From NCBI RefSeq assembly GCF_026319365.1, contig NZ_JAPDMS010000001.1, forward strand, positions 932,456 through 996,455: a DNA stretch of 64,000 bases, read 5' to 3'. How positions within the stretch are numbered: position 1 is the stretch's first letter; each line of letters opens with the position of its first letter. Under the pieces are notes generated by a model. It did no database searches. It was not told where the DNA came from and saw nothing but the letters and a program-made list of their open reading frames with translations. This document shows positions 22,281 to 36,362 of this stretch, piece after piece. This stretch comes from Methylophaga sp. OBS1. Lineage in GTDB: Bacteria > Pseudomonadota > Gammaproteobacteria > Nitrosococcales > Methylophagaceae. Both the position numbers and the translations under genes were made by a program.

Positions 22281-22434
22281 TCCTCGTTGTGAAGATAAAA
22301 AAATTAGCTGACTAATAGTTTGGCATCAGTAAAAAATTATTGCATTGATCCAGCACAAAATGCAGCAAGAATTCAGCCAAAGCGACAAAAGAAATAGCTG
22401 TGACAATGAATAGGTATTTATTTTGCCTGTTTAT

Positions 22435-23484
22435 ATGGTAATACCGGGTCTGGATCGTTATGATAACGCACCATTATTGTGCAATCTGAGTGAGTTGATG
22501 CGCTTCAAAACCAATCGAGACGCCGTGGCCCAATGGCTTGGCATTGAACGCAACCAGACCAGTCATACTGAAAAAGTGATTTCGGCTTTCGGCGCCGGGA
22601 CCGGTATTGCGATGACAGTGCTGTTTTCAATGTGGTTGATTACACAGACGGATATCGGCGCTACAGGAAGCTTGCTGATTATCAGCTCAATGGGGGCTTC
22701 GGCGGTGTTGTTATTTGCTGTGCCACATGGGGCATTATCGCAGCCCTGGCCGGTTTTTGGCGGCCATATGACTGCCGCTTTTATCGGTATAACTTGTCAA
22801 CGGTGGTTGCCATCTAGCTTTGTTACCGCGGGCATTGCTGTCGGGGTGGCAGTGGGGGTGATGTACTATTTACGCTGCATCCATCCCCCGGGTGGCGCCA
22901 GCGCCCTGACAACTCTAATAGGTGGCAGTGAAGTTGTTGATATGGGTTATCAGTTTCTGTTTTATCCGCTACTGCTTAATGTCATCGTCATACTGGGCAT
23001 TGCGATGAGCTTTAATTTTTTCTTTCCCTGGCGGCGCTATCCGGCCCATATCAACACACGGCATCTGACTGAAAACACTGGTCAATTATCGACATCGGAT
23101 TATGTCCTTACCACGGAGGATTTCAATGCGGCGATCCATAAACTGGACTCCTTCGTTGATATTACTGAGGAAGGATTGACTGAACTGCTGGAGCAGGCCA
23201 GGCAGCATGCACAATACAGTGTGAATCACCCTGATGAGATTAAGCGAGGCCACTATTACAGCAACGGTAATATCGGTAATCTGTGGGGCGTCCGCCAAGT
23301 CATCGATGAGGCTGACAATCAATCCCCGGGAAAGGACAAAGTCATCTATAAAACAGTGGCCGGACAAAACTTGTATGAAACCGGTTACTGTGAACGCGAA
23401 ACCTTCCGCCAGTGGGCTCGCTACGAAGTGGTGGAAACCCGGGGCTTATGGGTAAAAGCGGATAAGCCTGAACAGATCAGCTGA
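22435..23484 (+). CDS. HPP-family membrane protein
   Basis: About 349 residues. The first half holds several membrane helices (about 50-190) with the family signature CIHPPGGASALTTLIGG. The C-terminal half (about 215-349) is a soluble extension with charged helices of unknown role. HPP proteins have been linked to nitrite transport in plants and cyanobacteria, but a general function is not established. The start is uncertain: TTG 22423, ATG 22435 and ATG 22498 are all in frame, and the HPP domain would be complete from any of them. Confidence 0.8.
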   Translation: MVIPGLDRYDNAPLLCNLSELMRFKTNRDAVAQWLGIERNQTSHTEKVISAFGAGTGIAMTVLFSMWLITQTDIGATGSLLIISSMGASAVLLFAVPHGALSQPWPVFGGHMTAAFIGITCQRWLPSSFVTAGIAVGVAVGVMYYLRCIHPPGGASALTTLIGGSEVVDMGYQFLFYPLLLNVIVILGIAMSFNFFFPWRRYPAHINTRHLTENTGQLSTSDYVLTTEDFNAAIHKLDSFVDITEEGLTELLEQARQHAQYSVNHPDEIKRGHYYSNGNIGNLWGVRQVIDEADNQSPGKDKVIYKTVAGQNLYETGYCERETFRQWARYEVVETRGLWVKADKPEQIS

Positions 23485-23563
23485 CTGTTGTCATCCTGTC
23501 TTTTATTTCAACGACGACAGTCGCTATGATGAGCACAAAAACCTGACCTGAAAGAGCCTGAAC

Positions 23564-24739
23564 ATTAATTCTCCAGATTTAAGCAGACGAAAAGTCATTA
23601 TCGCCGGTATCAGTGCCCTGATTCTGACCGTTGGCATTGCGCGGTTTACCTATACACCGTTTCTGCCATTAATGCTGGAACAGGCAGGGCTGTCGACCCT
23701 GGCCGGTGGTTGGCTGGCTACTTTTAATTACAGTGGTTATCTGCTCGGTGTCATCCTGATTGCCTGGATCAGTGATCTGGAGCTTAAATTCAAACTCTAC
23801 AGGCTCAATTTGATCCTGGCTGTGCTCAGCACCATCGCTATGGGCATGACTACCCATGTGGTTTTATGGAGCCTGTTCAGGCTGATTGCCGGCTTATCCA
23901 GCACCGCCGGCATCATTCTCGCAGCGGGATTTGTGATGAGTTGGCTGAAACGTCATCAGTTCCGAGGTAATCTGGGCCTGCACTTCTCCGGTCTGGGGCT
24001 GGGTATAGCGATTCCGGGCATGGCCATTGTCTGGATGAACCATCACCTTGACTGGGCGCTGCAATGGGTTGTGATGGGTATATTCGGTCTGGTGTTTTTT
24101 ATACCAGCCTGGCGTTGGATGCCAGCGCCGGTCAAACAAGCTGAGCAGCATGACAGCCAGTTCAAACCACCATCCAGAAGCTGGATGAATCTGATGATTG
24201 CGGCGTATTTCTGTGCCGGTGTCGGCTACGTAGTCAGCGCCACCTTTATTGTAGCGATTCTTGAACATATGCCGGCGCTGGCGGGCTGGGGAGACTGGAT
24301 CTGGGTAATCCTGGGCCTGACCGCGGTACCGTCCTGTGTGGTCTGGGACAAAATTTCCCACCGTCTGGGGGAGACCAGCGCTTTAATCGCGAGTTACAGC
24401 ATTCTGCTGATATCGATCATTATTCCGGCCCTGACTAACAGCCTCTGGCTCAATGTACTGGGGGCGATACTGTTCGGCGGGACATTTGCCGGTGTTGTCA
24501 GCCTGATGCTGGTATTCATCGGTCATAAGTTTCCCCATAACCCGGCTAAGGCGATGGCGAAACTGACCATCAGCTATGGCATCGCGCAGATTACCGCACC
24601 GGCGATTGCCGGTTATATCGCAACACTGACCGGTAGTTATAGCGGAGCGCTGTGGCTGGCTGCAGCCTGCATGGCGGTCGGTATTGCATGTTTATGGCAG
24701 ATTCACCGCATTAGTCGCGACGGGGAAAATGCAGTGTAA
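23564..24739 (+). CDS. MFS transporter, YbfB/YjiJ family, non-AUG start
   Basis: Twelve-helix major facilitator of about 391 residues, inner membrane, substrate unknown. From the first ATG (23672) the protein would begin in the middle of helix 1. In the same open frame upstream the codons read ...SRRKVIIAGISALILTVGIARFTYTPFLP, the conserved first helix of this family. The frame is open only from the TGA at 23549, so translation must begin at a rare codon: ATT 23564 (with AAAGAG 7 bases upstream) or CTG 23558. The last 29 bases overlap the convergent histidine kinase gene. Confidence 0.75.
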   Translation: MNSPDLSRRKVIIAGISALILTVGIARFTYTPFLPLMLEQAGLSTLAGGWLATFNYSGYLLGVILIAWISDLELKFKLYRLNLILAVLSTIAMGMTTHVVLWSLFRLIAGLSSTAGIILAAGFVMSWLKRHQFRGNLGLHFSGLGLGIAIPGMAIVWMNHHLDWALQWVVMGIFGLVFFIPAWRWMPAPVKQAEQHDSQFKPPSRSWMNLMIAAYFCAGVGYVVSATFIVAILEHMPALAGWGDWIWVILGLTAVPSCVVWDKISHRLGETSALIASYSILLISIIIPALTNSLWLNVLGAILFGGTFAGVVSLMLVFIGHKFPHNPAKAMAKLTISYGIAQITAPAIAGYIATLTGSYSGALWLAAACMAVGIACLWQIHRISRDGENAV

Positions 24740-26090
24740 AGCAGGTCTGCTCCTCGTCAGATTCCAGCGAGATGCTGCCACCATGTGCCGTAACAATCGA
24801 TTTGACCAGTGCCAGTCCCAAGCCCGTGCCTTTGTTCTCCGTACCCCGGGAACGATAGAAGCGGTCAAACAATTTGTCTCTGTCCGATTCTGGTATCGGC
24901 CCGCCTGCATTTGATACTGTGATTTGCACTTCGTCCGGCAAAGACGCCATGTGCAGTTTGACCCAACTTCCCTTGGGACTGTGACGAATAGCATTGGTGA
25001 GCAGATTGCCGACAGCGCGTCTTATCATCAAACGGTTAGCCTGCAGCGTCGCCTCGCCCCCAGCAGACAGATTCATTGCCTTATCTTCAGCCAGAATGGA
25101 ATAAAACTCTAATAAGTTATTGATTTCATTGCTCAGATTAATTGTCTCAATATCTGGTAATTGCTGAGTGTTGTCAGTCTGTGCCAGAAACAGCATATCG
25201 GCGATCATCTGACTCATGCGCTGTAACTCTTCCATGCTGGAATAGAGCACCTCACGATATTCATCGGACCTTCTGTCAGCACTCAGCGCCACCTGAGTCT
25301 GGGTCATTAAGGAAGTCACCGGTGTCCGCAGTTCATGAGCGATATCTGAGGAATAATCGGCCAGATGCTGAAAAGCGTCATCAATGCGTCTCATCATGGC
25401 ATTCAGAGAGTTTGATAGCTGAGCCAGTTCTCTGGGGACCTGGTTGGTGTCGAGCGGATCATTCAATTGCGATACGGACAGATTACGAATCTTTTTCACG
25501 ATGGCCGAGAGCGGTCGTAATGAATAGCGAATCGCCAACCAGCCCAGCACGGTGGACATGACAATCGCGGCTAACAGAATCAGCCACAGACTCTGATTGA
25601 ACTGCTGTAGGAAGCTGAGGTGGTAATCAATCGCGATGGCTGCAGTAATGTGAAATGACTGTCCGCTTGTGGTTTCAAAACCTTGATAGCGAAGCCGATA
25701 ATGTCGTTTATCCGCCGTTTCCAGCGTGACGGGCTGCTCCGCGACCTCAGCCTGCCAGCGCAATAACTCAGCAGCGTCCGGATCACTCAGGTAAACCCTG
25801 TGCCCCTTAGCCTCACTTACCAGCAGAAGAGGATGATGATGCCCAATAAGAATATCTTCGAAACGCTGAGGCAGATTGTCACCTCCCTGTTCCAGGGTGA
25901 TTTCAACCCGCTTGATAATCGCCTCTAACTCGGCATTGTCACCGACTTTGAAATGGTGGCGAATAGCCGTTTCAACAAACACGCCCAGACCGCTGATTAC
26001 AATCAACATAATCAACGCAAACAACAGGGTTTGTCTGGCAGCCAGCGATAAGGATTTGAATTTAGTCCTGGCTTGTTGCATCACAGACAT
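24711..26090 (-). CDS. copS: Copper-responsive sensor histidine kinase (CopS/CusS-like)
   Basis: Inner-membrane kinase of 459 residues: membrane helix (about 18-38), periplasmic sensor loop (about 40-165), second helix (about 167-190), HAMP, HisKA with the phospho-accepting His in DIAHELRTPVTS (near 255), and HATPase with NLLTNAIRHSPKG and GTGLGLALVK. It overlaps the response-regulator gene by 29 bases. Its position divergent from copAB supports copper sensing; the periplasmic loop contains several His. The metal specificity is inferred. Confidence 0.88.
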   Translation of the reverse strand: MSVMQQARTKFKSLSLAARQTLLFALIMLIVISGLGVFVETAIRHHFKVGDNAELEAIIKRVEITLEQGGDNLPQRFEDILIGHHHPLLLVSEAKGHRVYLSDPDAAELLRWQAEVAEQPVTLETADKRHYRLRYQGFETTSGQSFHITAAIAIDYHLSFLQQFNQSLWLILLAAIVMSTVLGWLAIRYSLRPLSAIVKKIRNLSVSQLNDPLDTNQVPRELAQLSNSLNAMMRRIDDAFQHLADYSSDIAHELRTPVTSLMTQTQVALSADRRSDEYREVLYSSMEELQRMSQMIADMLFLAQTDNTQQLPDIETINLSNEINNLLEFYSILAEDKAMNLSAGGEATLQANRLMIRRAVGNLLTNAIRHSPKGSWVKLHMASLPDEVQITVSNAGGPIPESDRDKLFDRFYRSRGTENKGTGLGLALVKSIVTAHGGSISLESDEEQTCFTLHFPRRD

Positions 26091-26745
26091 AGCCCATGCC
26101 CCGAACAGTATGAATTAATTTCAGTTCATAGCCTTCATCGACCTTGGAACGTAAGCGACGAATTGCCACATCAATGACATTGGTGTCACTGTCAAAGTTA
26201 ATATCCCACACCATGGAGGCAATCATGGAGCGGGGCAGGACCTGGCCCTGATGCCTGACCAGCAATTCCAGCAAGGCAAATTCTTTGACGGTGAGCCGGA
26301 TTTGTTGACCGCCGCGATAGACCCGGCGTCCGATTAGATCGATTTCCAGATCAGCGAGTGTCAAAACTGACTCTGCAATCGGCTGCTGGCCGCGCCTAAG
26401 TAATGTTCTGATACGGGCAAGCAGTTCGGCAAAAGCAAAGGGTTTCACCAGGTAATCATCAGCACCGGCTTCCAGCCCGGTAACCCGGTCCTCGATGCTG
26501 GCTTTGGCAGTCAGTAACAACACGGGCGGTGCCGTTCCCTGCGCCTGTATCTGCTTAAGTACCTGCAAGCCATCCATGTCCGGCAGCATTCTGTCTAGAA
26601 TCACCAAATCAAAAGGGGTACTGGCCTGTTCGTGTAACCCATCGATGCCATGACGAACCCAGCTCACGACAAAAGAAGCCTCGGTCAGACCCTGCGTCAG
26701 ATATCGACCAGTTTTCTCGTCATCTTCAATGATCAACAGGCGCAT
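26062..26745 (-). CDS. copR: OmpR-family response regulator (CopR/CusR-like)
   Basis: A 227-residue regulator with a receiver domain (about 1-115; acidic pocket IEDDE, phospho-acceptor Asp in LVILDRMLPDMDG, Lys in YLVKPFAFAEL) and a winged-helix DNA-binding domain (about 130-225; NVIDVAIRRLRSKVD, HTVRGMGYVCD). I start it at ATG 26745, where the conserved MRLLIIEDDE begins; an upstream ATG at 26802 would add an unconserved 19-residue tail. It is divergent from copA across a palindromic operator. Confidence 0.92.
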   Translation of the reverse strand: MRLLIIEDDEKTGRYLTQGLTEASFVVSWVRHGIDGLHEQASTPFDLVILDRMLPDMDGLQVLKQIQAQGTAPPVLLLTAKASIEDRVTGLEAGADDYLVKPFAFAELLARIRTLLRRGQQPIAESVLTLADLEIDLIGRRVYRGGQQIRLTVKEFALLELLVRHQGQVLPRSMIASMVWDINFDSDTNVIDVAIRRLRSKVDEGYELKLIHTVRGMGYVCDATSQD

Positions 26746-26803
26746 AAAGGTTCCAAATCCAGTTAGCCTGCCAGTGCGAGTCTGACAGCTTGATGAAGCC
26801 AAG

Positions 26804-26819
26804 ATGACATTTTTGTCAT
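26804..26819. promoter_or_regulatory. CusR/CopR-type palindromic operator
   Basis: A perfect ATGACA-TTTT-TGTCAT palindrome in the copR/copA intergenic region, 68 bases upstream of the copA ATG. It matches the core of the known CusR/CopR boxes (TGACA and TGTCA half-sites separated by 4-6 bases). It can serve both divergent units. Confidence 0.75.
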
Positions 26820-26886
26820 GTTGGCGTCACCTTGCTGAAAGCTGTTGTTTGCTAGCTTGGCGTTATCAACATAAAAGCACATCACT

Positions 26887-28647
26887 ATGACACAGCATCA
26901 TAACAAGCAAAGACGGCAAATATTACAGGCACTGGCATCTGCAGGATTGTTGAGTGCTGTTTATCCTCTAATGCCGGCCATGGCCAAACAGTCGCTCACG
27001 CCTTTGGTTCCGGGGCGGGCAGAGGGTAATGCTGATATTTTTGACTTTAATATTGCCCGAACACCACTGGAGATTGACGGTCAGTTCAGCGCACAGGCGA
27101 TCACCATCAACGGCACTATCCCGGCGCCGCTGCTCAAGCTCAAAGAAGGTAGAGAAGCCGTTTTACGGGTCAAAAACGAGCTCGATGTCGATACTTCGAT
27201 TCACTGGCACGGTATTTTACTGCCTTATCAGATGGATGGTGTGCCCGGTATTTCCTTTGCTGGGATCAAACCCGGTGAAACCTTTGAGTATCGGTTTCCG
27301 GTCGTGCAAAACGGCACTTACTGGTATCACAGTCATTCCGGTATGCAGGAACAATTAGGTCATTACGGACCCCTGATCATCGAGCCGGAACAGGATGATG
27401 ACATCAGCGTTGATCGTGATTATGTGATTCTGCTTTCCGACTGGACTTTCGATAGCCCGGCCGATGTGATGCGCAAGCTGAAAGTGGCGGAGGGGTACTA
27501 CAACTACAATCACCGTACCGTTGCTGACTTTTTTAATGATGTTGAAAAAATGGGCTGGCAGGCAGCCTGGCAGAAATCGGCGATGTGGGGACAGATGCGC
27601 ATGAGCCCGCGCGATATCCTGGATGTGACCGGCAGTGAATACGCCTATTTGATTAACGGTAAGGCGACTGCGGGTAACTGGACCGGGCTATTTAGTCCGG
27701 GTGAGAAAGTCCGATTGAGGGTGATCAATGCCTCAGCCATGACATTTTTTGACCTGAAAATACCCGGCCTCGAAATGACGGTTGTCGCTGCTGATGGGCA
27801 ACCGGTTCAGCCAGTAAAAACCGATGAGTTTCGTATCGGCGTGGCCGAAACCTATGATGTGATTGTAGAGCCTGTGGATGAGGCCTACACCCTCTTTGCC
27901 CAGTCACAGGACCGCAGTGGTTTTGTCAGCGCCACGCTGGCGTCGCGTCCCGGTCTGACAGCACCGATTCCTGACCTGTATCCCCGAGTTGAAAGGGGCA
28001 TGGAAGCAATGGGAGCCGGTCATGATATGCATGGTCAAATGGCGATGGACAGCAGTGAAGATGACATGCAGATGGATCATGGAGAACACCATGCACATCA
28101 GATGGCTGCTGAGGACACAGTAGAAACCGTTTCCCACGGGCCTGATAATCATGGACCCGGCGCCGCCATGGTAGTGGATAGACCTACCTCCAGGCTCGAT
28201 GATCCCGGTGTCGGTTTTGAGCATGTGGATCATCGGGTGCTGACCTATTCGCAATTGAAAAGCCATGATGGCTGGCCCGATAAAAGACCGCCGGCGCGGG
28301 AAATTGAACTGCATCTGACTGGTAGCATGGAACGCTACATGTGGTCTTTTGACGGCAAAAAGTTCTCGGAAGTGGATGGCCCCATTCGATTCTATAAAGA
28401 CGAGCGCCTGAGACTGACTTTGGTGAATGACACCATGATGGATCATCCGATCCACCTGCACGGGATGTGGATGGAACTGGAAAACGGTCATGGTGACCTG
28501 AGGCCCAGAAAACACACCATTATCGTCAAACCAGGTGAGCGGGTGTCGTCCCTGATTACCGCCGATGCCTTCGGAGACTGGGCATTCCACTGTCATCTGA
28601 TGTATCACATGAAAGCCGGCATGTTCCGTGTCGTTTCGGTGGCCTAG
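26887..28647 (+). CDS. copA: Multicopper oxidase, copper resistance protein CopA
   Basis: Periplasmic multicopper oxidase of 586 residues, thought to oxidise Cu(I) and bind copper. A twin-arginine-type signal (KQRRQILQALASAG) starts the protein. Copper ligands: HWHGILLP, WYHSHSGMQEQLG, HPIHLHGMWMEL and the type 1 site HCHLMYHMKAGMF. A Met/His-rich segment at about residues 375-420 (MHGQMAMD, MQMDHGEHHAHQM) is typical of the CopA group and binds extra copper. copB follows after 9 bases. Confidence 0.95.
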   Translation: MTQHHNKQRRQILQALASAGLLSAVYPLMPAMAKQSLTPLVPGRAEGNADIFDFNIARTPLEIDGQFSAQAITINGTIPAPLLKLKEGREAVLRVKNELDVDTSIHWHGILLPYQMDGVPGISFAGIKPGETFEYRFPVVQNGTYWYHSHSGMQEQLGHYGPLIIEPEQDDDISVDRDYVILLSDWTFDSPADVMRKLKVAEGYYNYNHRTVADFFNDVEKMGWQAAWQKSAMWGQMRMSPRDILDVTGSEYAYLINGKATAGNWTGLFSPGEKVRLRVINASAMTFFDLKIPGLEMTVVAADGQPVQPVKTDEFRIGVAETYDVIVEPVDEAYTLFAQSQDRSGFVSATLASRPGLTAPIPDLYPRVERGMEAMGAGHDMHGQMAMDSSEDDMQMDHGEHHAHQMAAEDTVETVSHGPDNHGPGAAMVVDRPTSRLDDPGVGFEHVDHRVLTYSQLKSHDGWPDKRPPAREIELHLTGSMERYMWSFDGKKFSEVDGPIRFYKDERLRLTLVNDTMMDHPIHLHGMWMELENGHGDLRPRKHTIIVKPGERVSSLITADAFGDWAFHCHLMYHMKAGMFRVVSVA

Positions 28648-28656
28648 GAGTCATTC

Positions 28657-29424
28657 ATGCCATTATCCAGAACCTTAACAACGATGTTTTCGCTGGCCCT
28701 GATAGTGGGGACAAACCAGACGCTGGCTGACGGCATCGGCCTGCAGGCCGATCCCAGCTGGCCTAAACCCATTCATGATGATATGGCCTATGGCCTGCTC
28801 CTGTTCGACCGTTTCGAAATACAAAGTATCGAGGGCAAAGAACAACTGCTCTGGGATGCGCAGGCCTGGTATGGCAAGGATTTGAATCGCTTCTGGCTGG
28901 AAACGGAAGGCAAATATGATGATGAGCACAGTGGTGAAATAGAAAATCTCGACTTACAGTACAGCCGTCGAATCAGTCCTTTCTGGGACCTGCAAACCGG
29001 TATCGGTACCCAGACCAGTTTCGGCGCCGGTGACAAGCACGAGCGTTACTACGGCATCATTGGTTTTCAGGGACTGGCACCTTACTGGTTCGAAATCGAC
29101 ACTAATCTTCGTCTCAGTGATGAAGGTGACACCTGGCTTGATCTGGAAGCAGAATATAACTGGCGCCTGACACAAAAGCTGATCCTGCAGGCGAGGGGAG
29201 AGACCAGTTTTGCTTTTTCCGACGCAGAGGAATTCGAGCAGGCAGAAGGACTGACAGGCATCACCGCCGGGCTACGCTTGCGTTATCACCTGAGTCGTGA
29301 GTTTGCCCCCTACATCGGCGTTACAGCCACACAATTATTTGGTGACACCAGAGATCTGGCTGAGAGTGAAGGCGGTGAAGACAGCACAACAAGCTTTGTT
29401 GCCGGGGTACGGTTCTGGTTCTGA
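28657..29424 (+). CDS. copB: Outer-membrane copper resistance protein CopB
   Basis: Outer-membrane beta-barrel of 255 residues with a signal peptide (cleavage near LADG, residue 25). The CopB family start of the mature region is visible (MAYGLLLFDRFE...), followed by amphipathic strands such as LNRFWLETEGKYDD and PYWFEIDTNLRLSDEGD, and a C-terminal aromatic residue (VRFWF). The His/Met-rich N-terminal region seen in some CopB proteins is absent. It is co-transcribed with copA. Confidence 0.92.
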   Translation: MPLSRTLTTMFSLALIVGTNQTLADGIGLQADPSWPKPIHDDMAYGLLLFDRFEIQSIEGKEQLLWDAQAWYGKDLNRFWLETEGKYDDEHSGEIENLDLQYSRRISPFWDLQTGIGTQTSFGAGDKHERYYGIIGFQGLAPYWFEIDTNLRLSDEGDTWLDLEAEYNWRLTQKLILQARGETSFAFSDAEEFEQAEGLTGITAGLRLRYHLSREFAPYIGVTATQLFGDTRDLAESEGGEDSTTSFVAGVRFWF

Positions 29425-29536
29425 TTTATCTCGATTAAAAGCCGGTCATCACAGGCAGAAAAATGACGCTGGTCATGAATTAAATCCTGTATATTAGCAA
29501 TACGCAGATGACTGCGGTTTCCTTCAGAGAACTTGG

Positions 29537-29917
29537 ATGTATCTCCAGCAACAGAGATTGTTAACTCATCACATAGCTGCCCGGCTGTGGATCCTGAGTT
29601 TTGCCTTTTTGATGGCTTTATTGCCGGTTGCTGCCTATTTCAACTCGGCCAATAATCATTCTGACACGGGCCTTGTATCCCATCTCGATACTCAGATAGC
29701 ACTGCATGATAATGGTCTGAGGCTGGGGCTTAAAACAGAGCAGTCCGGGCAGTCGTCCGTGGATATTGACCCACCGGACTGGCAGGCGCTGGTTTCTGTC
29801 TGGCTTTCACTTTTCTATTTTCATTCATCACTGTCTTCACTGACTCGGCATTTATCTGCTAAAGCCAGTGCCAGTCGTTTTCTTCGCCCCCATCTAAGAG
29901 CACCACCTCTGCGCTAA
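29537..29917 (+). CDS. Candidate secretion-monitor arrest peptide upstream of secDF (RAPP-type)
   Basis: A 126-residue protein with one hydrophobic segment (about 17-36, ARLWILSFAFLMALLPVAAYF) that fits a signal or signal-anchor, then a low-complexity mature part, ending PHLRAPPLR. RAPP occupies residues 121-124 (codons 29897-29908). RAPP-containing arrest peptides upstream of secDF or yidC genes are known in other bacterial phyla (ApdA, ApdP), and VemP and SecM play the same role before secDF2 and secA. Here the secDF start lies 68 bases after the stop, and a hairpin can mask it (next entry). I infer a regulatory nascent chain; the protein itself may have no other function. A short copper-associated membrane protein is the alternative. 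Confidence 0.78.
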   Translation: MYLQQQRLLTHHIAARLWILSFAFLMALLPVAAYFNSANNHSDTGLVSHLDTQIALHDNGLRLGLKTEQSGQSSVDIDPPDWQALVSVWLSLFYFHSSLSSLTRHLSAKASASRFLRPHLRAPPLR

Positions 29918-29985
29918 TCCCGAAATCCATGGCGCCGCCAGATTCTACTGGCTTCGCACATATTCACTCTATTTTGAGGATTAGC
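29913..29985 (+). promoter_or_regulatory. RNA hairpin masking the secDF ribosome-binding site
   Basis: GCTAATCC at 29913-29920, spanning the last sense codon and stop of the upstream ORF, is the exact complement of GGATTAGC at 29978-29985, which contains part of the secDF Shine-Dalgarno (GAGGA, 29976-29980) and ends at its ATG. After a 2x2 internal mismatch three more A-T pairs follow (29923-29925 with 29973-29975). An inner stem GCCAG/CTGGC (29937-29941 with 29948-29952), extended by GCG/CGC, fills the loop. A ribosome paused at RAPP would cover the left arm and open the site. Confidence 0.75.
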
Positions 29986-32505
29986 ATGAAATCTTTATCT
30001 ATGCGGGCCATTGTTTATGGCCTATTAATCGTGCTCGGTTTAATGAGCGCGCTCCCCAATCTTTTGCCTGATAGAATCGCCGGTGAATTACCGGCCTGGT
30101 ACAGCAAGAACAGTGTGGCTCTGGGACTCGATCTTCAGGGCGGTTCCCATCTTTTGCTGGAAGCGGACAGTCAGGCACTTATCAACGAGCAATACCAGTC
30201 AGTCGCCGATGAACTGACCGATCGACTTCGTGAAGCGGGTATCTATTACAAGCAACCTGTCATTACACCTGACGGTCTGGATTTAACATTAAGAAGTCAG
30301 GACTCCGTACAGCAAGCTCAGGCCATTGCCGAATCTTTAGCCCGTGACAGTCAAACCGGTAGCCGACGTTTTAATGTTAAAAACCAGCTTACTGGTATTC
30401 AAGTCACTCTAGACAAAGGCTGGACTGAAGCCGTGTTGGCTGATGCCGTTGAGCGTAGTCTGGAAGTGGTCAGGAAGCGTCTGGATGAGAGCGGTCTGGT
30501 CGATCCCAGTATTACCCGTCAAGGCGATGCTGGCATCCTGGTTCAAATGCCCGGGGTCGCCGATCCCACTGAGATTCGTCAGCTGCTCGGCACCACAGCC
30601 AAGATGAGCTTTCATTGGGATGCTCAGGGTGGCGTGGAAGAGGGCACCCTGTCTCTTCCGGCACAGGACGGCCAACAACAGTTCAGACTGGAAAAACGGA
30701 TTGCAATGGAAGGCCAGCATATCCGTGATGCGCAGGCCAGCTTTAATCCGGACAGTGGTGAACCGGTGGTGACTTTCAAACTCGATAATGAGGGCGCCAA
30801 ACTGTTTGGCAAGATGACGCGTGACAATATCGGTCGGCCACTTGCTATCGTACTTGATGACAAAGTCATTACTGCGCCGGTCATTCGAAATGAAATTGCT
30901 GCCGGTAGTGGCGAAATCAGCGGAAGCTTCACTACTCAGGAAGCAGCCGAATTGGCCTTGCTGCTTCGCGCCGGCGCTTTGCCGGTGCCACTCCTGGTAA
31001 TGGAAGAGCGTAGTGTCGGCCCCGATCTCGGCAGTGATGCCATTGCCATGGGGCTGGCCACCGGTCTATTTGGCGCGGCCCTGGTTATTTTATTCATGAT
31101 GAGTATTTACGGCCGCTGGGGCTTCATCGCCTGCGTCAGTCTTGCTATCAATATGGGGCTGGTGTTTGGCATATTGAGTCTGCTGGGTGCCACCTTAACC
31201 CTGCCGGGCATTGCCGGCATCATTCTGACCCTGGGGATGGCGGTTGATGCCAATATTCTGATTAACGAGCGGATCCGCGAGGAATCCAGAAATGGTAAAT
31301 CAGCCTGGAAAGCCCTTCATCAAGGCTTTGACAAAGCTTACACCACAATTCTAGATTCTAACCTGACGACGCTGATTGCGGTCAGTCTGCTGTTCATGTT
31401 TGGCAGCGGGCCGGTACAGGGATTTGCGGTGACGATTGGTATCGGTCTGTTGACCTCGATGTTTACCGCGATTGCCGTCACCCGTTTGTTGATGGAGTGG
31501 TCAATCAAAGGCCGTGAGAAAAAACCTCTGGAGATTAATGGTTTTGCTTTGCTTGATAAACTGAGCAGCCGCTCGCTGGATTTCCTGCGGGGACGGTTTG
31601 TGGGGCTCACTGTATCGGCTTTATTGTCGCTCGCTGCCATTATGCTGTTTTTTCAGCCGGGTTTGAAATACGGTGTTGATTTTACCGGTGGCACGCTGGT
31701 TGAAGTTCACGCCAGTCAGCTTTCAGTGGAAGACTTACGCGCTACGCTGCAAAACCATGCTATGGCGCAGGCCTCGATTCAGGAGTCGGCAGAGCTGGGT
31801 GAGCTTCTGGTCCGATTGCCGGCCGAAAATCAGGCCCCGGCAGCGACAGCGGCACAAGTCGATGCCTTGAAAACAGCGGTTCAGAGCGTGCAGCCTGATG
31901 CTGCGTTTCCCAAAGTGGATATGGTCGGACCCAAGGTCAGCAGCGGCTTTGCCGATGATACGATTCTGGCCATTTTGCTGGCTGGATTCGGCATGCTGGC
32001 TTATCTGGCGATTCGCTTTGAATCGCATTTTGCCATTGCGGCAACGCTAACGATTGCGCTGGATTTAACCAAAACCATTGGCTTTTTTGCCCTGACCGGG
32101 GTGGAGTTTAATCTGACAGCAGTCGCGGCCTTGCTTGCTTTGATTGGTTATTCGGTCAACGACAAGGTGGTGGTGTTCGATCGCATCCGGGAGAATCTGC
32201 GTGCCAACCCGGATAAGCCAATGATGACGCTGATGAACGAATCCATTTCATCCACGCTGACAAGGACGGTATTCACCTCAGTCACGACTTTCTTGGCTTT
32301 ATTACCGATGGGGATCGCCGGCGGTTCGGCGGTGGCCAGTTTTGCCTTGCCGATGTTATTTGGCATCGTGATTGGTACCAGTTCATCGGTCTTTATTGCT
32401 GCGCCAATCCTGTATTTTCTGGGACAGCGTCGTAAGCAGAAAGGGCTGCCTCAGTTGCGTCCAACTGCAGAGGAGATGCAGCAGCGATTGGCTGAAATCC
32501 CTTAA
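29986..32505 (+). CDS. secDF: Fused protein translocase subunit SecDF
   Basis: One polypeptide of 839 residues carrying both SecD and SecF, the RND-like proton- or sodium-driven partners of SecYEG. SecD half: GLDLQGGSHLLLEAD near residue 40, P1 periplasmic domain, then helices with GMAVDANILINERIREE. SecF half: YGVDFTGGTLVEV near 560 and ALIGYSVNDKVVVFDRIREN near 730. ATG 29986 is preceded by GAGGA. Most gammaproteobacteria have separate secD and secF genes next to yajC; a fused copy without yajC suggests an accessory or regulated translocation motor. Expression is probably controlled by the upstream arrest-peptide candidate. Confidence 0.95.
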   Translation: MKSLSMRAIVYGLLIVLGLMSALPNLLPDRIAGELPAWYSKNSVALGLDLQGGSHLLLEADSQALINEQYQSVADELTDRLREAGIYYKQPVITPDGLDLTLRSQDSVQQAQAIAESLARDSQTGSRRFNVKNQLTGIQVTLDKGWTEAVLADAVERSLEVVRKRLDESGLVDPSITRQGDAGILVQMPGVADPTEIRQLLGTTAKMSFHWDAQGGVEEGTLSLPAQDGQQQFRLEKRIAMEGQHIRDAQASFNPDSGEPVVTFKLDNEGAKLFGKMTRDNIGRPLAIVLDDKVITAPVIRNEIAAGSGEISGSFTTQEAAELALLLRAGALPVPLLVMEERSVGPDLGSDAIAMGLATGLFGAALVILFMMSIYGRWGFIACVSLAINMGLVFGILSLLGATLTLPGIAGIILTLGMAVDANILINERIREESRNGKSAWKALHQGFDKAYTTILDSNLTTLIAVSLLFMFGSGPVQGFAVTIGIGLLTSMFTAIAVTRLLMEWSIKGREKKPLEINGFALLDKLSSRSLDFLRGRFVGLTVSALLSLAAIMLFFQPGLKYGVDFTGGTLVEVHASQLSVEDLRATLQNHAMAQASIQESAELGELLVRLPAENQAPAATAAQVDALKTAVQSVQPDAAFPKVDMVGPKVSSGFADDTILAILLAGFGMLAYLAIRFESHFAIAATLTIALDLTKTIGFFALTGVEFNLTAVAALLALIGYSVNDKVVVFDRIRENLRANPDKPMMTLMNESISSTLTRTVFTSVTTFLALLPMGIAGGSAVASFALPMLFGIVIGTSSSVFIAAPILYFLGQRRKQKGLPQLRPTAEEMQQRLAEIP

Positions 32506-32520
32506 ATTAGCTAATCAAGA

Positions 32521-32543
32521 GGAACCGGACTTTGTCCGGTTCC
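32521..32543. terminator. Bidirectional hairpin between secDF and nnrS
   Basis: Perfect 9-bp stem GGAACCGGA/TCCGGTTCC (32521-32529 with 32535-32543) with loop CTTTG, placed directly after the secDF stop and directly at the stop of the convergent NnrS gene. No long T-run, so efficiency is uncertain, but position and strength suggest a shared terminator. Confidence 0.65.
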
Positions 32544-32544
32544 A

Positions 32545-33723
32545 CTAGCTATCTGCTCTGGGTGCGATCAGAATTGGGGTATAGCGATACAGGAAAATGC
32601 CGTAAGCCAGACTCCAGAATGCCATGCTCAGCCACCAGGCCCAGAGACTGAGCGAGGGCGCTAATATCACCAGCCCGACACGCGTTAATGCGGCCAGCAG
32701 TACCAATCCCAGCGCCAGCCTGATCACCGGCACAGCAGTTATAGGCCGGCCGGTATGACCCAGCGAAACGCGGGATATCATACTCAGAATCAGTCCGCCC
32801 ATCGCGCCCACAGTGAGTGCGTGTAAAGCGGTGCTCAAGCTGATTGCCAGGCCGGCATGGTGACAGGCAATTAAAAACAGACCCAGTGGGATAAACCAGT
32901 AACTCAGATGCAGTGACCATAACAGGGCATGTCTGAAAGTCGATAAGGGCCGCCAGAGGGCGCAGCGGGCAGCGATAAAGAGTGCTGTAATCGCAAACAA
33001 TACTGCCAGCAGACTGTCAGCCAGATAAGCCTGTAACTGGAAAATGTAAATCGCAACCAGAGCCCATAAAAGACCAAGACCGGCTTTATCCAGCACCTCG
33101 ATCCGTGATCTCGGGGGAATCTGGGTGGTATTACCGGTAAACATCGGAATCACCCGGCCACCGATGACTGTCATTAACAGGGTAATCAGTAAAATCACAC
33201 TGTGCAGCGACTGAGTCGCTACCTGGAAATGACCGGCTGCAACAGCGAAATGAAATACCAGATTATCCGCAGTCAGTAACAACAACGCGCCAACGGCAAA
33301 ATAGTTACGACGCTGCTGCTTTTTAATTAAAAGTCGCGCTAACAGCCAGGCAGCAATCAGCAAAAAGCTGCTGTCAACGACAATAATCAGCCACCACGGC
33401 AACATTGCGGCGAACCAGATCGTAAATCGGCCCAGTAACCATAAGCTAATCAATAAAATGAGGACTTTGCCATGAGCAGAGCGCAGGCCGGTCCAGTTCT
33501 GTACCGCTGTCAGCAGGAAACCGACGAGTATGGCCGCTACAAAACCAAACAGCATTTCATGACCATGCCAGAGTTGGCTGTATCCATGGTATGCATGACT
33601 TACCCAGCCATGCAGGTTCGCTCCCCAGAGCCATAATGCAATCATGCTGAACGTTGCGCCAAGCAGGAAAAAAGGTCTGAAAGCCAGATCCAGCAGCGCA
33701 TGTTGTGATTCTTTATTTGTCAT
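32545..33723 (-). CDS. nnrS: NnrS family membrane protein
   Basis: Polytopic inner-membrane protein of 392 residues with about 12 predicted helices. The NnrS signature is recognisable in ALLDLAFRPFFLLGA, WHGHEMLFGFVAAILVGFLLTAVQNWTG and GGRVIPMFTGNT. NnrS proteins bind heme and copper and are tied to nitric oxide stress. No NO reductase or NnrR gene is adjacent here. A small exported protein gene lies 67 bases upstream on the same strand, with a strong hairpin between. Confidence 0.93.
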   Translation of the reverse strand: MTNKESQHALLDLAFRPFFLLGATFSMIALWLWGANLHGWVSHAYHGYSQLWHGHEMLFGFVAAILVGFLLTAVQNWTGLRSAHGKVLILLISLWLLGRFTIWFAAMLPWWLIIVVDSSFLLIAAWLLARLLIKKQQRRNYFAVGALLLLTADNLVFHFAVAAGHFQVATQSLHSVILLITLLMTVIGGRVIPMFTGNTTQIPPRSRIEVLDKAGLGLLWALVAIYIFQLQAYLADSLLAVLFAITALFIAARCALWRPLSTFRHALLWSLHLSYWFIPLGLFLIACHHAGLAISLSTALHALTVGAMGGLILSMISRVSLGHTGRPITAVPVIRLALGLVLLAALTRVGLVILAPSLSLWAWWLSMAFWSLAYGIFLYRYTPILIAPRADS

Positions 33724-33747
33724 TGCTTCAACCCGGTGAAAGCGTGG

Positions 33748-33783
33748 CTCCGGGCAGGTTGCTGATAGCTACCGTGCCCGGAG
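33748..33783 (-). terminator. Strong hairpin between a small exported-protein gene and nnrS
   Basis: Perfect 9-bp stem CTCCGGGCA/TGCCCGGAG (33748-33756 with 33775-33783) in the 67-base gap upstream of nnrS. No T-run follows on the minus strand, so this could attenuate readthrough into nnrS or stabilise the upstream transcript. Confidence 0.45.
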
Positions 33784-33790
33784 AAAGCCA

Positions 33791-34099
33791 TTAATCGCGC
33801 CAGTAATCATTGGCGATAGCGATAGTCTTGAATTCAATTGCCACCAGCTCAGCAGCGTTCATCAACAGTGCCGGATCTTCAGCGTATTTCGCTCTGACCC
33901 GGTGCTTGGCAGCGCTGTCTGTCTGAATGGTGCCGATAGTTTTGCGTACTATCTTGATCGCAAGCTGACGACCTTCATAGGGGGTGTCGGTAATCAGTGA
34001 AGGCATATAGTCGTCACTGGCTTTCATCTCTTCAGCACTCGCGGTGACTGGCAACCAAAAAGCCATTAACAGAGGAAACAGATAAATTATTGATTTCAT
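33791..34099 (-). CDS. Small exported protein of unknown function
   Basis: A 102-residue protein with a clear signal peptide (ending ...VTASA, about residue 22) and a mature region of about 80 residues that is charged and probably helical, with no cysteine. I recognise no family. It is divergent from the MarR regulator gene at 34165 and may share a regulatory region with it, and it lies upstream of nnrS on the same strand. Confidence 0.68.
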   Translation of the reverse strand: MKSIIYLFPLLMAFWLPVTASAEEMKASDDYMPSLITDTPYEGRQLAIKIVRKTIGTIQTDSAAKHRVRAKYAEDPALLMNAAELVAIEFKTIAIANDYWRD

Positions 34100-34164
34100 G
34101 GTACTATCTCCTTATGTTCGCAAACCAACTGTTCGCAGCCTAACGTTATGCTGGATAAATATGC

Positions 34165-34620
34165 ATGTCAAGTACCTCTTTAAGTAGCCCTGGCACGCCG
34201 GGCCCGAAATTAGCAGAGCAAGTCTGCTATGCGTTGTATTCAACCAGCGGGATTGTTACGCAGGCTTATGCTCAGTTGCTCAAGCCACATCAGCTCACCT
34301 ATTCACAGTTTGTGGTGTTGATGGGGCTATGGCAGGGAGAGGGTGTTTCAGTCACCGAACTGGGCGCTAACATCGGGCTGAGCAAAGCCACTTTAACGCC
34401 CATGCTGAGAAGCCTCGAAAACCATGGTTATCTTCAACGCAAAAGGGTGCCCGGCAATGAACGAACGATGGCCATCACACTGAGCCGGCAAGGTCGTGAG
34501 TTTGCCCTCAAGGCTGAAGCTATAGCTCAGCAGGCATTGTGTGCCACAGGGCTGTCATCAGCCGAAGCATCGCAACTGATTGCGCTATGCAACAAAATTA
34601 AAAGCAAACTGGGTAAGTAA
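34165..34620 (+). CDS. MarR-family regulator, OhrR-like
   Basis: Winged-helix regulator of 151 residues. The N-terminal block VCYALYSTSG with Cys21 and the following YAQLLKPHQLTYSQFVVLMGLW closely resemble the OhrR subgroup, in which this Cys senses organic hydroperoxides. The recognition-helix region LSKATLTPMLRSLENHGYLQRKR is complete. No ohr gene is adjacent, so the target is not evident; the divergent small exported-protein gene is one candidate. An alternative ATG at 34161 is out of frame. Confidence 0.85.
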   Translation: MSSTSLSSPGTPGPKLAEQVCYALYSTSGIVTQAYAQLLKPHQLTYSQFVVLMGLWQGEGVSVTELGANIGLSKATLTPMLRSLENHGYLQRKRVPGNERTMAITLSRQGREFALKAEAIAQQALCATGLSSAEASQLIALCNKIKSKLGK

Positions 34621-34632
34621 ATAGCTAAAAGA

Positions 34633-34656
34633 CAGGGGAGAGCAAACTCCCCCCTG
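34633..34656. terminator. G/C hairpin between convergent marR-type and CBS genes
   Basis: CAGGGGAG (34633-34640) can pair with CTCCCCCCTG (34647-34656) with two unpaired C. It sits between two convergent stops (34620 and 34673). No T-run; a weak terminator candidate. Confidence 0.35.
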
Positions 34657-34672
34657 AATAAAGGCAATGATT

Positions 34673-35128
34673 TCAATGTGGCCGTTGTCTGAGTTCCTCG
34701 CATGCCTGCTCTCTGGTAATCAACGCAGACATATCCCGCAGAATATTGGATGAGACTTCAATCAGGTCATCCATACTCAATATCCCACAGAGGCTCCCAT
34801 CTGAGGCAACAACCGGCGCCCGCCTTACCCCGCGCCGACTCATTTCTTTCATGGTATCCGCGATATCCGCATTGTCTCTCACCGTCATCAGGTCATCGCT
34901 CATACAATCACCTACTGTGATGGCGCTTAGGTCGGCATCATCGGCGACTAAATTAATGACGATATCGCGATCAGTCAGGATACCCAAAGGTCTGTTCTGA
35001 CCGTTTTCCTTACTGACAACAATCACATCACCGACGTGATGTATTTTCATCTGTCTGGCGGCTTCCTGAACTTTCTCATTTTTTTCCAACATGGCTACTT
35101 TGTGCTGACAAACATCCAGAATATTCAT
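34673..35128 (-). CDS. Tandem CBS-domain protein
   Basis: About 151 residues composed of two CBS repeats (about 10-65 and 75-130; GILTDRDIVINLV and GILSMDDLIEV are the conserved strand-turn segments). CBS pairs bind adenosine ligands and signal energy state or act as regulatory modules. I start at ATG 35128, which has GAGGTG 6-7 bases upstream; an ATG at 35137 is in frame. It stands alone, with no partner domain, and its target is unknown. Confidence 0.87.
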   Translation of the reverse strand: MNILDVCQHKVAMLEKNEKVQEAARQMKIHHVGDVIVVSKENGQNRPLGILTDRDIVINLVADDADLSAITVGDCMSDDLMTVRDNADIADTMKEMSRRGVRRAPVVASDGSLCGILSMDDLIEVSSNILRDMSALITREQACEELRQRPH

Positions 35129-35477
35129 GGTGAACACCTCTCTGTTGTTTGATAAGACGAGTTTCGTCTGACGAGCTTACAAAGAGTCCGAACGATACAT
35201 TACAAGCCAACAAATTTTTCGGGACAATTCTGGCTAAGGCTCAGCCAGGGCAGGATGTTGCTTTCTCTGCTGACCTTAATCCAGTCATACGTCTCTTTGA
35301 AAGCAGATTTTGTGAACATGGCGCGTGTATGAGTGTCTTAGTATGTAAACGCCACAAACCAACCGTAACAAATAAAAGCGACTCATCCAAATCATCTGTG
35401 TTTGCAGTCTGATTTTGAGTTCCCTGCACAAAACAGGGTGTTGGGTGAAATAGCGGTTTCAGAGAAAGGAGGCAAAA
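35129..35477. other. Intergenic region upstream of the DJ-1 gene
   Basis: About 350 bases without a supported gene. A TTG-initiated open frame of 87 codons (35149-35412) has no ribosome site, recognisable domain or plausible composition, so I do not call it. A short GACGA/TCGTC hairpin lies near 35155-35170. A very strong AAAGGAGG ribosome site at 35466-35473 serves the DJ-1 gene. Confidence 0.4.
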
Positions 35478-35990
35478 ATGAAAGCCATCATTCTCAGTGC
35501 TGATCACTTTGAAGACAGCGAGGTGACCGAGCCGCTCAAGCAACTGGAGCAGGCCGGTGTTGAATATGATATCGCCTCACTGCAAACCGGCATTATTAAA
35601 GGCAAGAAGGGCACTGAAGTAGTTGCCGGGATGACACTCAATGAAGTCAATACGGCTGATTATGCACTGTTACTATTACCCGGCGGTGAGGCTCCGGCTA
35701 ACTTGAGAAAGTCAGAACGGGCGCTGGATATCGCCAAACATTTCTTCGCCGAAAGCAAGCTTGTCGCTGCAATTTGTCACGGGCCACAGATTCTGGTCAC
35801 AGCTGACTTGTTGAAGGGGCGCAAGGCGACTTGTGTTGAAAAAATTGCCAATGAATTGATAGATGCAGGGGCGGAATATCTTGATGCCCCCGTGGTGATT
35901 GATGAGAACCTGATAACATCAAGGCACCCCGGTGACCTGGATGCTTTCAACAAAGCAATACTGACTAAACTACAACCGGTCAACAGCTGA
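35478..35990 (+). CDS. DJ-1/PfpI family protein (YhbO/YraA-like)
   Basis: A 170-residue cytoplasmic protein of the class I glutaminase-like fold. The nucleophile elbow AAICHGPQIL holds the reactive Cys (about 104) followed by His, and LLLPGGEAP carries the partner Glu region. The YhbO/GSP18 group is linked to stress resistance and to glyoxal/methylglyoxal detoxification. The ribosome site AAAGGAGG is near-perfect, suggesting high expression. A YeaO-like gene follows after 6 bases, apparently in the same operon. Confidence 0.92.
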   Translation: MKAIILSADHFEDSEVTEPLKQLEQAGVEYDIASLQTGIIKGKKGTEVVAGMTLNEVNTADYALLLLPGGEAPANLRKSERALDIAKHFFAESKLVAAICHGPQILVTADLLKGRKATCVEKIANELIDAGAEYLDAPVVIDENLITSRHPGDLDAFNKAILTKLQPVNS

Positions 35991-35996
35991 TTCGTC

Positions 35997-36362
35997 ATGA
36001 CAAACCCAAGCACAATCAAACTGAAGAGAGTCTATGACAAGTCGGCCAAGTCAGATGGTGTCAGGCTGCTTGCTGACCGTCTCTGGCCGCGTGGCATTAA
36101 AAAGACCGAGCTGGACTATGACGACTGGATTAAAGCTTTATGTCCACCCAACGATCTAAGAAAAGCCTGGCATCAGGATGAAATCAGTGATGCCCAGTTC
36201 AAAAGGCAATATATCCAGTCACTCCAGTCAGCGCCTGAGGCAATGGCAGCAGTCGCTCAATTAGCAGAAAAAAAGCCGATTACCTTGCTCTCTGTGGTCA
36301 AAGACCTTGAGCAATCGCATCTGCCGATACTGAAACAGGCCATCATAAACGCGATGAAATAG
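35997..36362 (+). CDS. DUF488 family protein (YeaO-like)
   Basis: A 121-residue protein with the family start IKLKRVYDKSAKSDGVRLLADRLWPRGIKK and the central LRKAWHQD segment. Function is not established for this family. It sits six bases after the DJ-1 gene, so the two are probably co-expressed as a small stress operon. Confidence 0.88.
   Translation: MTNPSTIKLKRVYDKSAKSDGVRLLADRLWPRGIKKTELDYDDWIKALCPPNDLRKAWHQDEISDAQFKRQYIQSLQSAPEAMAAVAQLAEKKPITLLSVVKDLEQSHLPILKQAIINAMK

What the first reader, a model, noticed from the sequence alone, without database searches (positions are those of the whole stretch)
29537..29917. Candidate RAPP-type translation-arrest peptide upstream of secDF
The 126-residue ORF has an export-type hydrophobic segment near its N terminus and ends in R-A-P-P-L-R just before its stop, directly upstream of a fused secDF gene. 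Known secretion monitors share this design: SecM before secA, VemP before secDF2, and the RAPP-motif peptides ApdA/ApdP before secDF or yidC. RAPP at residues 121-124 lies far enough from the N terminus (about 85 residues after the hydrophobic segment) for the signal to engage SecYEG while the RAPP codons are decoded. I know of no described example next to a copper-resistance locus in a gammaproteobacterium of this kind.
Basis: partly seen in the sequence, partly recalled or inferred. Interest (0 to 1): 0.95.

Follow-up and report, generated by a model that had tools for sequence, protein, structure and literature searches.

The report
Ribosome-stalling leader gauging protein export
In front of a second secDF export-motor gene of a Methylophaga-like bacterium lies a small gene whose protein ends in RAPP, likely a leader that stalls its own ribosome to switch the motor on when export fails, and whose relatives in the gammaproteobacteria nearly all carry an acidic patch about 46 residues before that end, where membrane voltage would be able to pull on it.

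Summary
ORF 29537-29917 encodes 126 residues with a hydrophobic segment near the N terminus and RAPP at residues 121-124, 68 nt before a fused secDF (secDF2). Leaders with a RAPP-like end precede 60 of 62 secDF2-lineage genes examined, against 1 of 35 SecD(F) genes outside that lineage. Beyond hydrophobicity and RAPP they have drifted to 19% mean column identity. In the window RNA the secDF2 ribosome-binding site pairs with the leader's last codons, which a ribosome stalled at RAPP would cover. The copper genes are incidental: they lie in a 4.7-kb segment missing from the next Methylophaga, where leader and secDF2 stay joined.

Three things go beyond the lead. (1) The leader-secDF2 pairs form one clade across alpha- and gammaproteobacteria, against the independent origins favoured in print. 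(2) The distance from hydrophobic segment to RAPP is narrow (median 92 residues). (3) In 33 of 35 non-redundant gammaproteobacterial leaders an acidic patch lies 38-61 (median about 47) residues before the stall site, where membrane voltage is reported to pull on acidic residues; 3 of 16 SecM leaders have one. I propose, untested, that these leaders sense membrane voltage. Arrest itself is untested.

The parts
29537..29917 (+). leader ORF (126 aa), predicted RAPP arrest peptide
   Evidence: dN/dS 0.32-0.37
29591..29635 (+). codons 19-33, hydrophobic export-signal-like segment
   Evidence: mean Kyte-Doolittle 2.41 over 15 residues; no signal-peptide predictor was available
29762..29779 (+). codons 76-81 (D76, D78, D81), acidic patch 47-42 residues before the P-site proline
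   Evidence: a patch at 38-61 residues in 33 of 35 non-redundant gammaproteobacterial leaders
29897..29908 (+). RAPP codons 121-124; predicted stall with P123 (29903-29905) in the P site and P124 in the A site
   Evidence: stall geometry from ApdA/ApdP (PMC10951233, passages)
29913..29920 (+). GCUAAUCC, overlapping the leader stop codon, predicted anti-Shine-Dalgarno strand
   Evidence: minimum-free-energy pairing with 29978-29985
29937..29952 (+). inner hairpin of the intergenic stem (GCCAG...CUGGC)
29976..29985 (+). secDF2 ribosome-binding site (GAGGAUUAGC) held in the predicted stem
29986..32505 (+). fused secDF2, 839 aa, start by homology
24741..29481 (.). copper-resistance segment (sensor kinase and response regulator by their sequence, multicopper oxidase, CopB), not part of the unit
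   Evidence: absent from L002 between the same neighbours; Pfam Cu-oxidase and CopB

Best explanation
This is a leader gene that is predicted to monitor Sec export and to control the secDF2 gene behind it by stalling its own ribosome at the C-terminal RAPP codons. Inferred steps: the hydrophobic segment brings the nascent chain to SecYEG; [quoted passage not shown] the stalled ribosome covers the RNA to about position 29919 and so opens the stem that hides the secDF2 ribosome-binding site, and SecDF2 is made. When export works, pull on the chain releases the stall, the stem re-forms and secDF2 is shut off. Shown here from sequence: the anatomy, the coding constraint, the linkage to secDF2 across two classes, and the narrow spacing; computed but not measured: the stem, in most gammaproteobacterial loci. 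Less sure: the acidic patch 42-47 residues from the P site lies where the chain enters SecYEG, so the pull it feels may come largely from the membrane voltage.
For: Homologues: 15 of 15 fused SecDF2 loci in the family carry the leader; of 28 further loci in another order 26 carry [RQH][AG]PP, one RDPP, one none. In all, 60 of 62 SecDF2-lineage loci have a leader with a RAPP-like end, 49 RAPP and 11 variants. All 61 leaders scored (these 60 plus L072) have a hydrophobic window of at least 1.6; its end lies a median of 92 residues before the P site, quartiles 89-96, 56 of 61 within 80-100. RNA: the window junction folds at -40.9 kcal/mol against a mean of -28 for shuffles, z -3.76; mean unpaired probability of the secDF2 site is 0.12 free and 0.45 once the ribosome-covered stretch is removed. 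Over 49 gammaproteobacterial loci the means are 0.19 and 0.44, with 0.34 for shuffled footprints; over all 61, 0.24, 0.45 and 0.37, Wilcoxon p about 1e-8. Tails pair better with their own site than with the average of relatives in 33 of 35 gammaproteobacterial leaders, p 3.5e-7. A relative, uDF_RQH_Enterobacterales of Alteromonas, was shown to stall and to induce secDF2 through such a stem (PMC10987492); an Alteromonas australica protein is nearly the L037 leader.
Against: No stalling, export or expression was measured. The stem is not general: in 11 of 61 loci removing the covered stretch does not open the site (gammaproteobacterial L023, L024, L082, L087, L091, L103, and five others), only 29 of 61 reach the 5% level against shuffles, own pairing ranks first in only 11 of 35 gammaproteobacterial leaders, and in the 11 alphaproteobacterial leaders (L072 included) it is no better than with others (p 1.0). 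Most RAPP-like sequences of E. coli and B. subtilis that were tested do not stall efficiently (PMC10987492), so the motif alone is not proof. L048 and L094 have secDF2 without such a leader.
Confidence: 0.82

Rival explanations
1. A generic secretion monitor in which the acidic patch is not a voltage grip: it contacts the ribosome exterior or the cytosolic loops of SecY, or simply keeps the chain soluble, and the stall reads any pulling force. This shares the core of the best explanation and differs only on the releasing force.
For: MifM residues at and outside the tunnel exit contribute to arrest, probably through uL23 (PMC6037786, passages); VemP arrest is set by SecY contacts of a short hydrophobic segment and Arg-85 (PMC11470409, passages). 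The patch is about as tightly spaced from the hydrophobic segment (median 44.0, quartiles 40.5-46.0) as from the P site, so its position alone does not single out the P site.
Against: The patch sits a median of 46.8 residues (quartiles 44.8-48.8) from the P site, which matches the SecYEG entrance at about 45 residues (PMC7886326, passages); of 16 SecM leaders read, 3 meet the same criterion (L107 at 48, L119 and L121 at the outer edge, 61).
Confidence: 0.45
2. A copper-sensing leader of the CruR/CutF kind: RAPP stalling is set by copper binding to the nascent chain, in keeping with the copA-copB neighbours.
For: CruR of Bordetella is a DUF2946 leader with a C-terminal RAPP that must be intact (PMC9426467, passages); a multicopper oxidase and copB lie just upstream.
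Against: No DUF2946 match up to E 10; no cysteine in P0001 and no CxxC in any of 61 leaders; the copper segment is absent from L002 while leader and secDF2 remain; the downstream gene is an export motor.
Confidence: 0.03
3. The leader is an ordinary small exported protein with a function of its own in the periplasm, and RAPP is incidental.
For: Protein-level constraint (dN/dS 0.32-0.37) and kept residues in the middle of close relatives.
Against: In 29 diverse leaders mean column identity is 19% and only the RAPP columns and M1 reach 90%; the predicted RNA stem runs through its last codons; the gene stands before secDF2 in 60 of 62 loci.
Confidence: 0.06
4. The ORF is a chance reading frame in a non-coding leader RNA.
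For: No Pfam or NCBIfam match except a weak, sub-threshold VMA21 hit.
Against: Shuffle control 2 of 1940; dN/dS below 1; the frame is kept over classes.
Confidence: 0.01

Closest known systems
uDF_RQH_Enterobacterales (Alteromonas naphthalenivorans; RQH family, Fujiwara et al. 2024, PMC10987492)
   Same: gammaproteobacterial leader before secDF2, RGPP/RAPP near the C terminus, stem that masks the secDF2 ribosome-binding site; an Alteromonas SecDF2 falls in the same clade as the window's
   Different: different order; no overall leader similarity was looked for with its own sequence; stalling and induction measured there, not here
ApdP (alphaproteobacteria, upstream of secDF2)
   Same: RAPP, hydrophobic N terminus, SecDF2 of the same clade; similar spacing
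   Different: no acidic patch (1 of 11) and no own-pairing of tail and ribosome-binding site
VemP (Vibrio, upstream of secD2-secF2)
   Same: works alike: export monitor in front of a second SecDF; the L074 VemP has an acidic stretch about 55-64 residues before residue 156
   Different: other arrest motif; its SecD2 groups with housekeeping gammaproteobacterial SecD, not with this SecDF2
SecM (PF06558) and SecM_small (PF10818), upstream of secA
   Same: RAGP end, signal sequence, and (in E. coli) a stem masking the secA ribosome-binding site (PMC10987492)
   Different: other target gene; 3 of 16 leaders meet the acidic-patch criterion
CruR (DUF2946, Bordetella)
   Same: leader with C-terminal RAPP
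   Different: CxxC copper site, DUF2946 profile, Rho-dependent control of a TonB receptor (PMC9426467); CxxC and DUF2946 are absent here, Rho was not tested

Membership tests
RQH-type RAPP arrest leaders of sec genes (PMC10987492 criteria) | small ORF of no annotated function directly upstream of sec/yidC, same strand | tested here: met
RQH-type RAPP arrest leaders of sec genes (PMC10987492 criteria) | N-terminal export signal or transmembrane segment | tested here: met
   hydrophobic window 2.41; by hydrophobicity only, no signal predictor
RQH-type RAPP arrest leaders of sec genes (PMC10987492 criteria) | C-terminal RAPP-like sequence conserved among homologues | tested here: met
   15 of 15 in the family (14 RAPP, 1 RAAP), 60 of 62 in the lineage
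RQH-type RAPP arrest leaders of sec genes (PMC10987492 criteria) | spacer of more than 30 residues between signal and motif | tested here: met
   90 residues
RQH-type RAPP arrest leaders of sec genes (PMC10987492 criteria) | translation arrest at the motif | not testable with these tools
   needs in vitro translation
[quoted passage not shown]
   stem predicted only
VemP | HRIxGWKETNAMYVxLNxx arrest motif | tested here: not met
   absent from P0001; motif as printed in PMC7897499
SecM | upstream of secA, FxxxxWIxxxxGIRAGP | tested here: not met
   downstream gene is secDF; no Pfam SecM match up to E 10
CruR / DUF2946 | DUF2946 profile with CxxC | tested here: not met
   no match, no cysteine
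ApdP | RAPP leader of secDF2 in alphaproteobacteria | tested here: inconclusive
   same SecDF2 clade, different class, leaders too diverged to compare

The most novel reading that the evidence does not exclude
The gammaproteobacterial secDF2 leaders are built-in voltmeters. RAPP stops the ribosome exactly when an acidic patch, about 46 residues up the chain, stands at the mouth of SecYEG; membrane voltage pulling on that patch releases the stall. When voltage or export falls, the stall holds, the stalled ribosome unmasks the secDF2 ribosome-binding site, and a second ion-driven export motor is made. A peptide would thus read the proton-motive force directly and control a machine that runs on it. 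The leader-secDF2 pair would be one module that arose once in the secDF2 lineage of the Proteobacteria.
Probability: 0.35. Interest if true: 0.88.

Novelty: new variant of a known kind. Interest (0 to 1): 0.73.

Why it matters
Secretion monitors are known to feel pulling force, but which force a given monitor is tuned to read is an open question. A conserved acidic patch at a narrow distance from the stall site makes one answer, membrane voltage, directly testable with charge mutants and an uncoupler. The SecDF2 clade also turns the published question of whether RAPP leaders arose repeatedly or once into something that can be checked lineage by lineage: within the proteobacterial secDF2 genes sampled here the linkage looks old and inherited.

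Tried and rejected
Copper-sensing leader (CruR): rejected, no DUF2946, no cysteine, copper segment absent in L002. Rfam: no match in 29300-30100 up to E 1. Promoter/terminator scan of 29350-30050: one promoter-like site, as many as shuffles; four terminator-like sites against 0.5 expected, not pursued. Viral contigs: no DNA matched the close-relative patterns of secDF2. A hold-out set for the acidic patch was sought with the last protein search: of 11 hits 7 were new, all close to leaders already seen (L037, L039 and L022 types), one (P0129) with a changed frame at the C terminus, so they are no independent test. The patch was thus found and tested on one sample, split into three groups afterwards (7 of 7, 4 of 5, 22 of 23). 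VemP as a member of the same SecDF2 lineage: rejected by the trees. One clade that takes in L072 (Alloyangia plasmid) with the other leader-bearing genes: rejected, p 2e-47 (the group was named after the tree was seen), so that RAPP leader is a second origin or a transfer of the leader alone. Structure prediction was not tried: a mostly unstructured exported leader would not be informative.

Full report
What is there. The window comes from a close relative of Methylophaga: SecDF is 97% identical to a Methylophaga MAG locus (L001) and 89% to a second (L002). ORF 29537-29917 is 126 codons long and ends RAPPLR. The gene behind it is a fused SecDF of the subfamily NF009583 whose start, by homologues and ribosome-binding site, is ATG 29986. 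The genomes of L001 and L002 also hold a separate secD-secF copy, about 39% identical, with a yajC-like ORF in front in L006 (yajC recognised by its sequence, no profile run). So this is a second copy, secDF2. No whole genome is held for the window itself.

Is it a real gene. A detector for an ORF of 105 or more codons with a RAPP-like end close to secDF fired in 2 of 1940 shuffled upstream regions and 0 of 97 reverse complements. Between the window and L001 and L002 the frame shows dN/dS 0.37 and 0.32; secDF2 itself 0.065 against L002.

Relatives in the family. Of 57 genomes of the L002 family, 15 hold a fused SecDF2 at 59-97% identity. All 15 have a leader whose stop lies 29-69 nt before secDF2, with a hydrophobic segment and RAPP (14) or RAAP (1, L022). 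The RAAP form recurs in P0130, so it is not a reading error of one contig. In L002 the copper genes are missing: its sequence runs from the same upstream neighbour (window 20472-24740) to the leader and beyond (29482-36361), so the window carries about 4.7 kb where L002 has about 190 bp.

Relatives beyond. SecDF2 is patchy at strict cut-offs: 2 of 369 genomes sampled from the class, 5 of 394 from one order, 15 of 63 in the order of the L002 genome, and 29 of 390 in a third order. That third order (of G876) lies in the same class as L002, since handle G217 from the class sample recurs in it; genome names are not given. Reading the upstream DNA of SecDF2-lineage loci, 60 of 62 have a leader ending in RAPP (49) or a variant (RGPP 5, HAPP 2, QAPP, HGPP, RDPP, RAAP one each). 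L048 and L094 have none. In a tree of the SecD part (96 rows) the lineage is one clade of 61 rows with SH-aLRT support 99, 59 of them with leader; outside it 1 of 35 rows has one (L072), and 29 of the 35 have a yajC-like ORF in front. The leader label changes 4 times on the tree against 29.1 in shuffles. A mixture-model tree of 55 of these rows gives the clade 100/99. Vibrio SecD2 behind a true VemP (L074) is not in it; it groups with housekeeping gammaproteobacterial SecD. Fujiwara et al. wrote that they favour repeated independent emergence of RAPP leaders (PMC10987492, passage). Within proteobacterial secDF2 my trees argue for one linkage inherited or transferred together. They say nothing on other phyla or on secA leaders, and a second gain is needed for L072.

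Anatomy. All 61 scored leaders have a hydrophobic window of at least 1.6. In 6 of them the strongest window is a second one 23-27 residues before the P site; taking the best window at least 55 residues upstream, the distance from its end to the P-site residue is 80-116 residues, median 92, quartiles 89-96. The published survey reports a wide range of lengths for most Sec leaders (PMC10987492, section 12 read), so the narrowness is of note; part of it may be shared descent. None of the 61 has CxxC.

Acidic patch. Among 35 non-redundant gammaproteobacterial leaders (of 49) acidic residues peak 45 residues before the P site; no shuffle of 2000 reaches the peak. At least three acidic residues in nine, 38-61 residues before the P site, are found in 33 of 35 (shuffles: mean 8.4, maximum 16 in 1000), against 2 of 35 at 14-37 and 6 of 35 at 62-85. 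L038 and L082 miss it. The patch centre has median 46.8 and quartiles 44.8-48.8; 30 of 35 lie in 40-52 against 9.8 in shuffles; the distance to the hydrophobic segment is about as narrow (median 44.0, quartiles 40.5-46.0). In the window it is D76, D78 and D81, 47 to 42 residues before P123. Controls with the same criterion: 1 of 11 alphaproteobacterial leaders, L072 included; 1 of 8 SecM_small (L107, at 48) and 2 of 8 SecM (both at the outer edge, 61; one of the 8, L121, is under the Pfam cut-off); these 16 were not thinned for redundancy. One VemP (L074) has up to five acidic residues in nine, at 60. VemP is described as extremely compacted on the ribosome (PMC5449182, title and start of abstract in a listing), so that may be the same physical place, but this is one sequence.

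Why voltage. A review of Ismail et al. 2015 reports that membrane voltage pulls acidic stretches through SecYEG and releases a SecM stall (PMC6028853, passages); another paper places the chain's meeting with SecYEG about 45 residues from the peptidyl transferase centre (PMC7886326, passages); a third reads the same data as force on the acidic stretch while it is in the cytoplasmic vestibule (PMC12562832, passages). From memory the primary paper puts the maximum at 47-49 residues; it is not held here. The review adds that uncharged and basic stretches also gained release, so voltage is not the whole force. For VemP a voltage effect on the positive Arg-85 has been discussed (PMC11470409, passages). 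I found no paper that proposes an acidic voltage grip in RAPP leaders: searches list none by title or abstract, and in the main text of PMC10987492 the words for negative charge concern MifM and 'acidic' and 'membrane potential' do not occur.

RNA. The window junction folds so that GCUAAUCC (29913-29920, across the leader stop) pairs with GGAUUAGC (29978-29985), burying the ribosome-binding site; z -3.76 against shuffles. A ribosome with P123 in the P site is taken to cover to about 29919. Removing the covered part raises the mean unpaired probability of the site from 0.12 to 0.45; 2% of footprint shuffles hide it as well. Over 49 gammaproteobacterial loci the means are 0.19 free, 0.44 stalled and 0.34 for shuffled footprints, with a rise in 43 of 49 and 27 of 49 at the 5% level; over 12 alphaproteobacterial-type loci 0.43, 0.49 and 0.48, a rise in 7 of 12. 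The tails fit their own site better than the average of others in 33 of 35 gammaproteobacterial leaders (ranking first in 11) and in 5 of 11 alphaproteobacterial ones. L023, L024, L082, L087, L091 and L103 do not show the opening.

Mechanism and likelihood. I put 0.82 on an export-gated RAPP arrest leader that controls secDF2, and 0.35 on membrane voltage as a main release force. What secDF2 adds is open. In Vibrio the second SecDF is a putative proton-driven motor that takes over when sodium is low (PMC11470409); Methylophaga are marine (recalled), so the same division is possible but untested.

Noticed in passing
window 24741-29481 against L002 4308-4495: A copper-resistance segment (two-component system, multicopper oxidase, copB) of about 4.7 kb sits between a transporter gene and the leader and is absent from the next relative.
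   Followed up: partly
SecDF2 of L014, L015, L001, L002 and window against L016-L025: SecDF2 genes of one family fall in two places of the SecDF2 tree; the window's group lies with a gene from another order (L040), which suggests lateral transfer of the leader-secDF2 pair.
   Followed up: partly
L072 (Alloyangia pacifica plasmid): RAPP leader before a fused SecDF outside the SecDF2 clade; forcing it in is rejected, so a second origin or transfer of the leader alone.
   Followed up: partly
leaders of window, L016, L023, L081, L091: A second, weaker hydrophobic stretch about 25-39 residues before RAPP, which would lie inside the ribosome tunnel at the stall.
   Followed up: partly
L013 and L079: The secDF2 reading frame is interrupted by one in-frame stop while the leader is intact.
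   Followed up: no
L074 489-974: A VemP with an acidic stretch about 55-64 residues before residue 156, possibly the counterpart of the acidic patch in a compacted chain.
   Followed up: partly
window 29401-29516: Two of the terminator-like stems lie between the end of copB and the leader; a boundary between the copper genes and the leader unit is possible.
   Followed up: no
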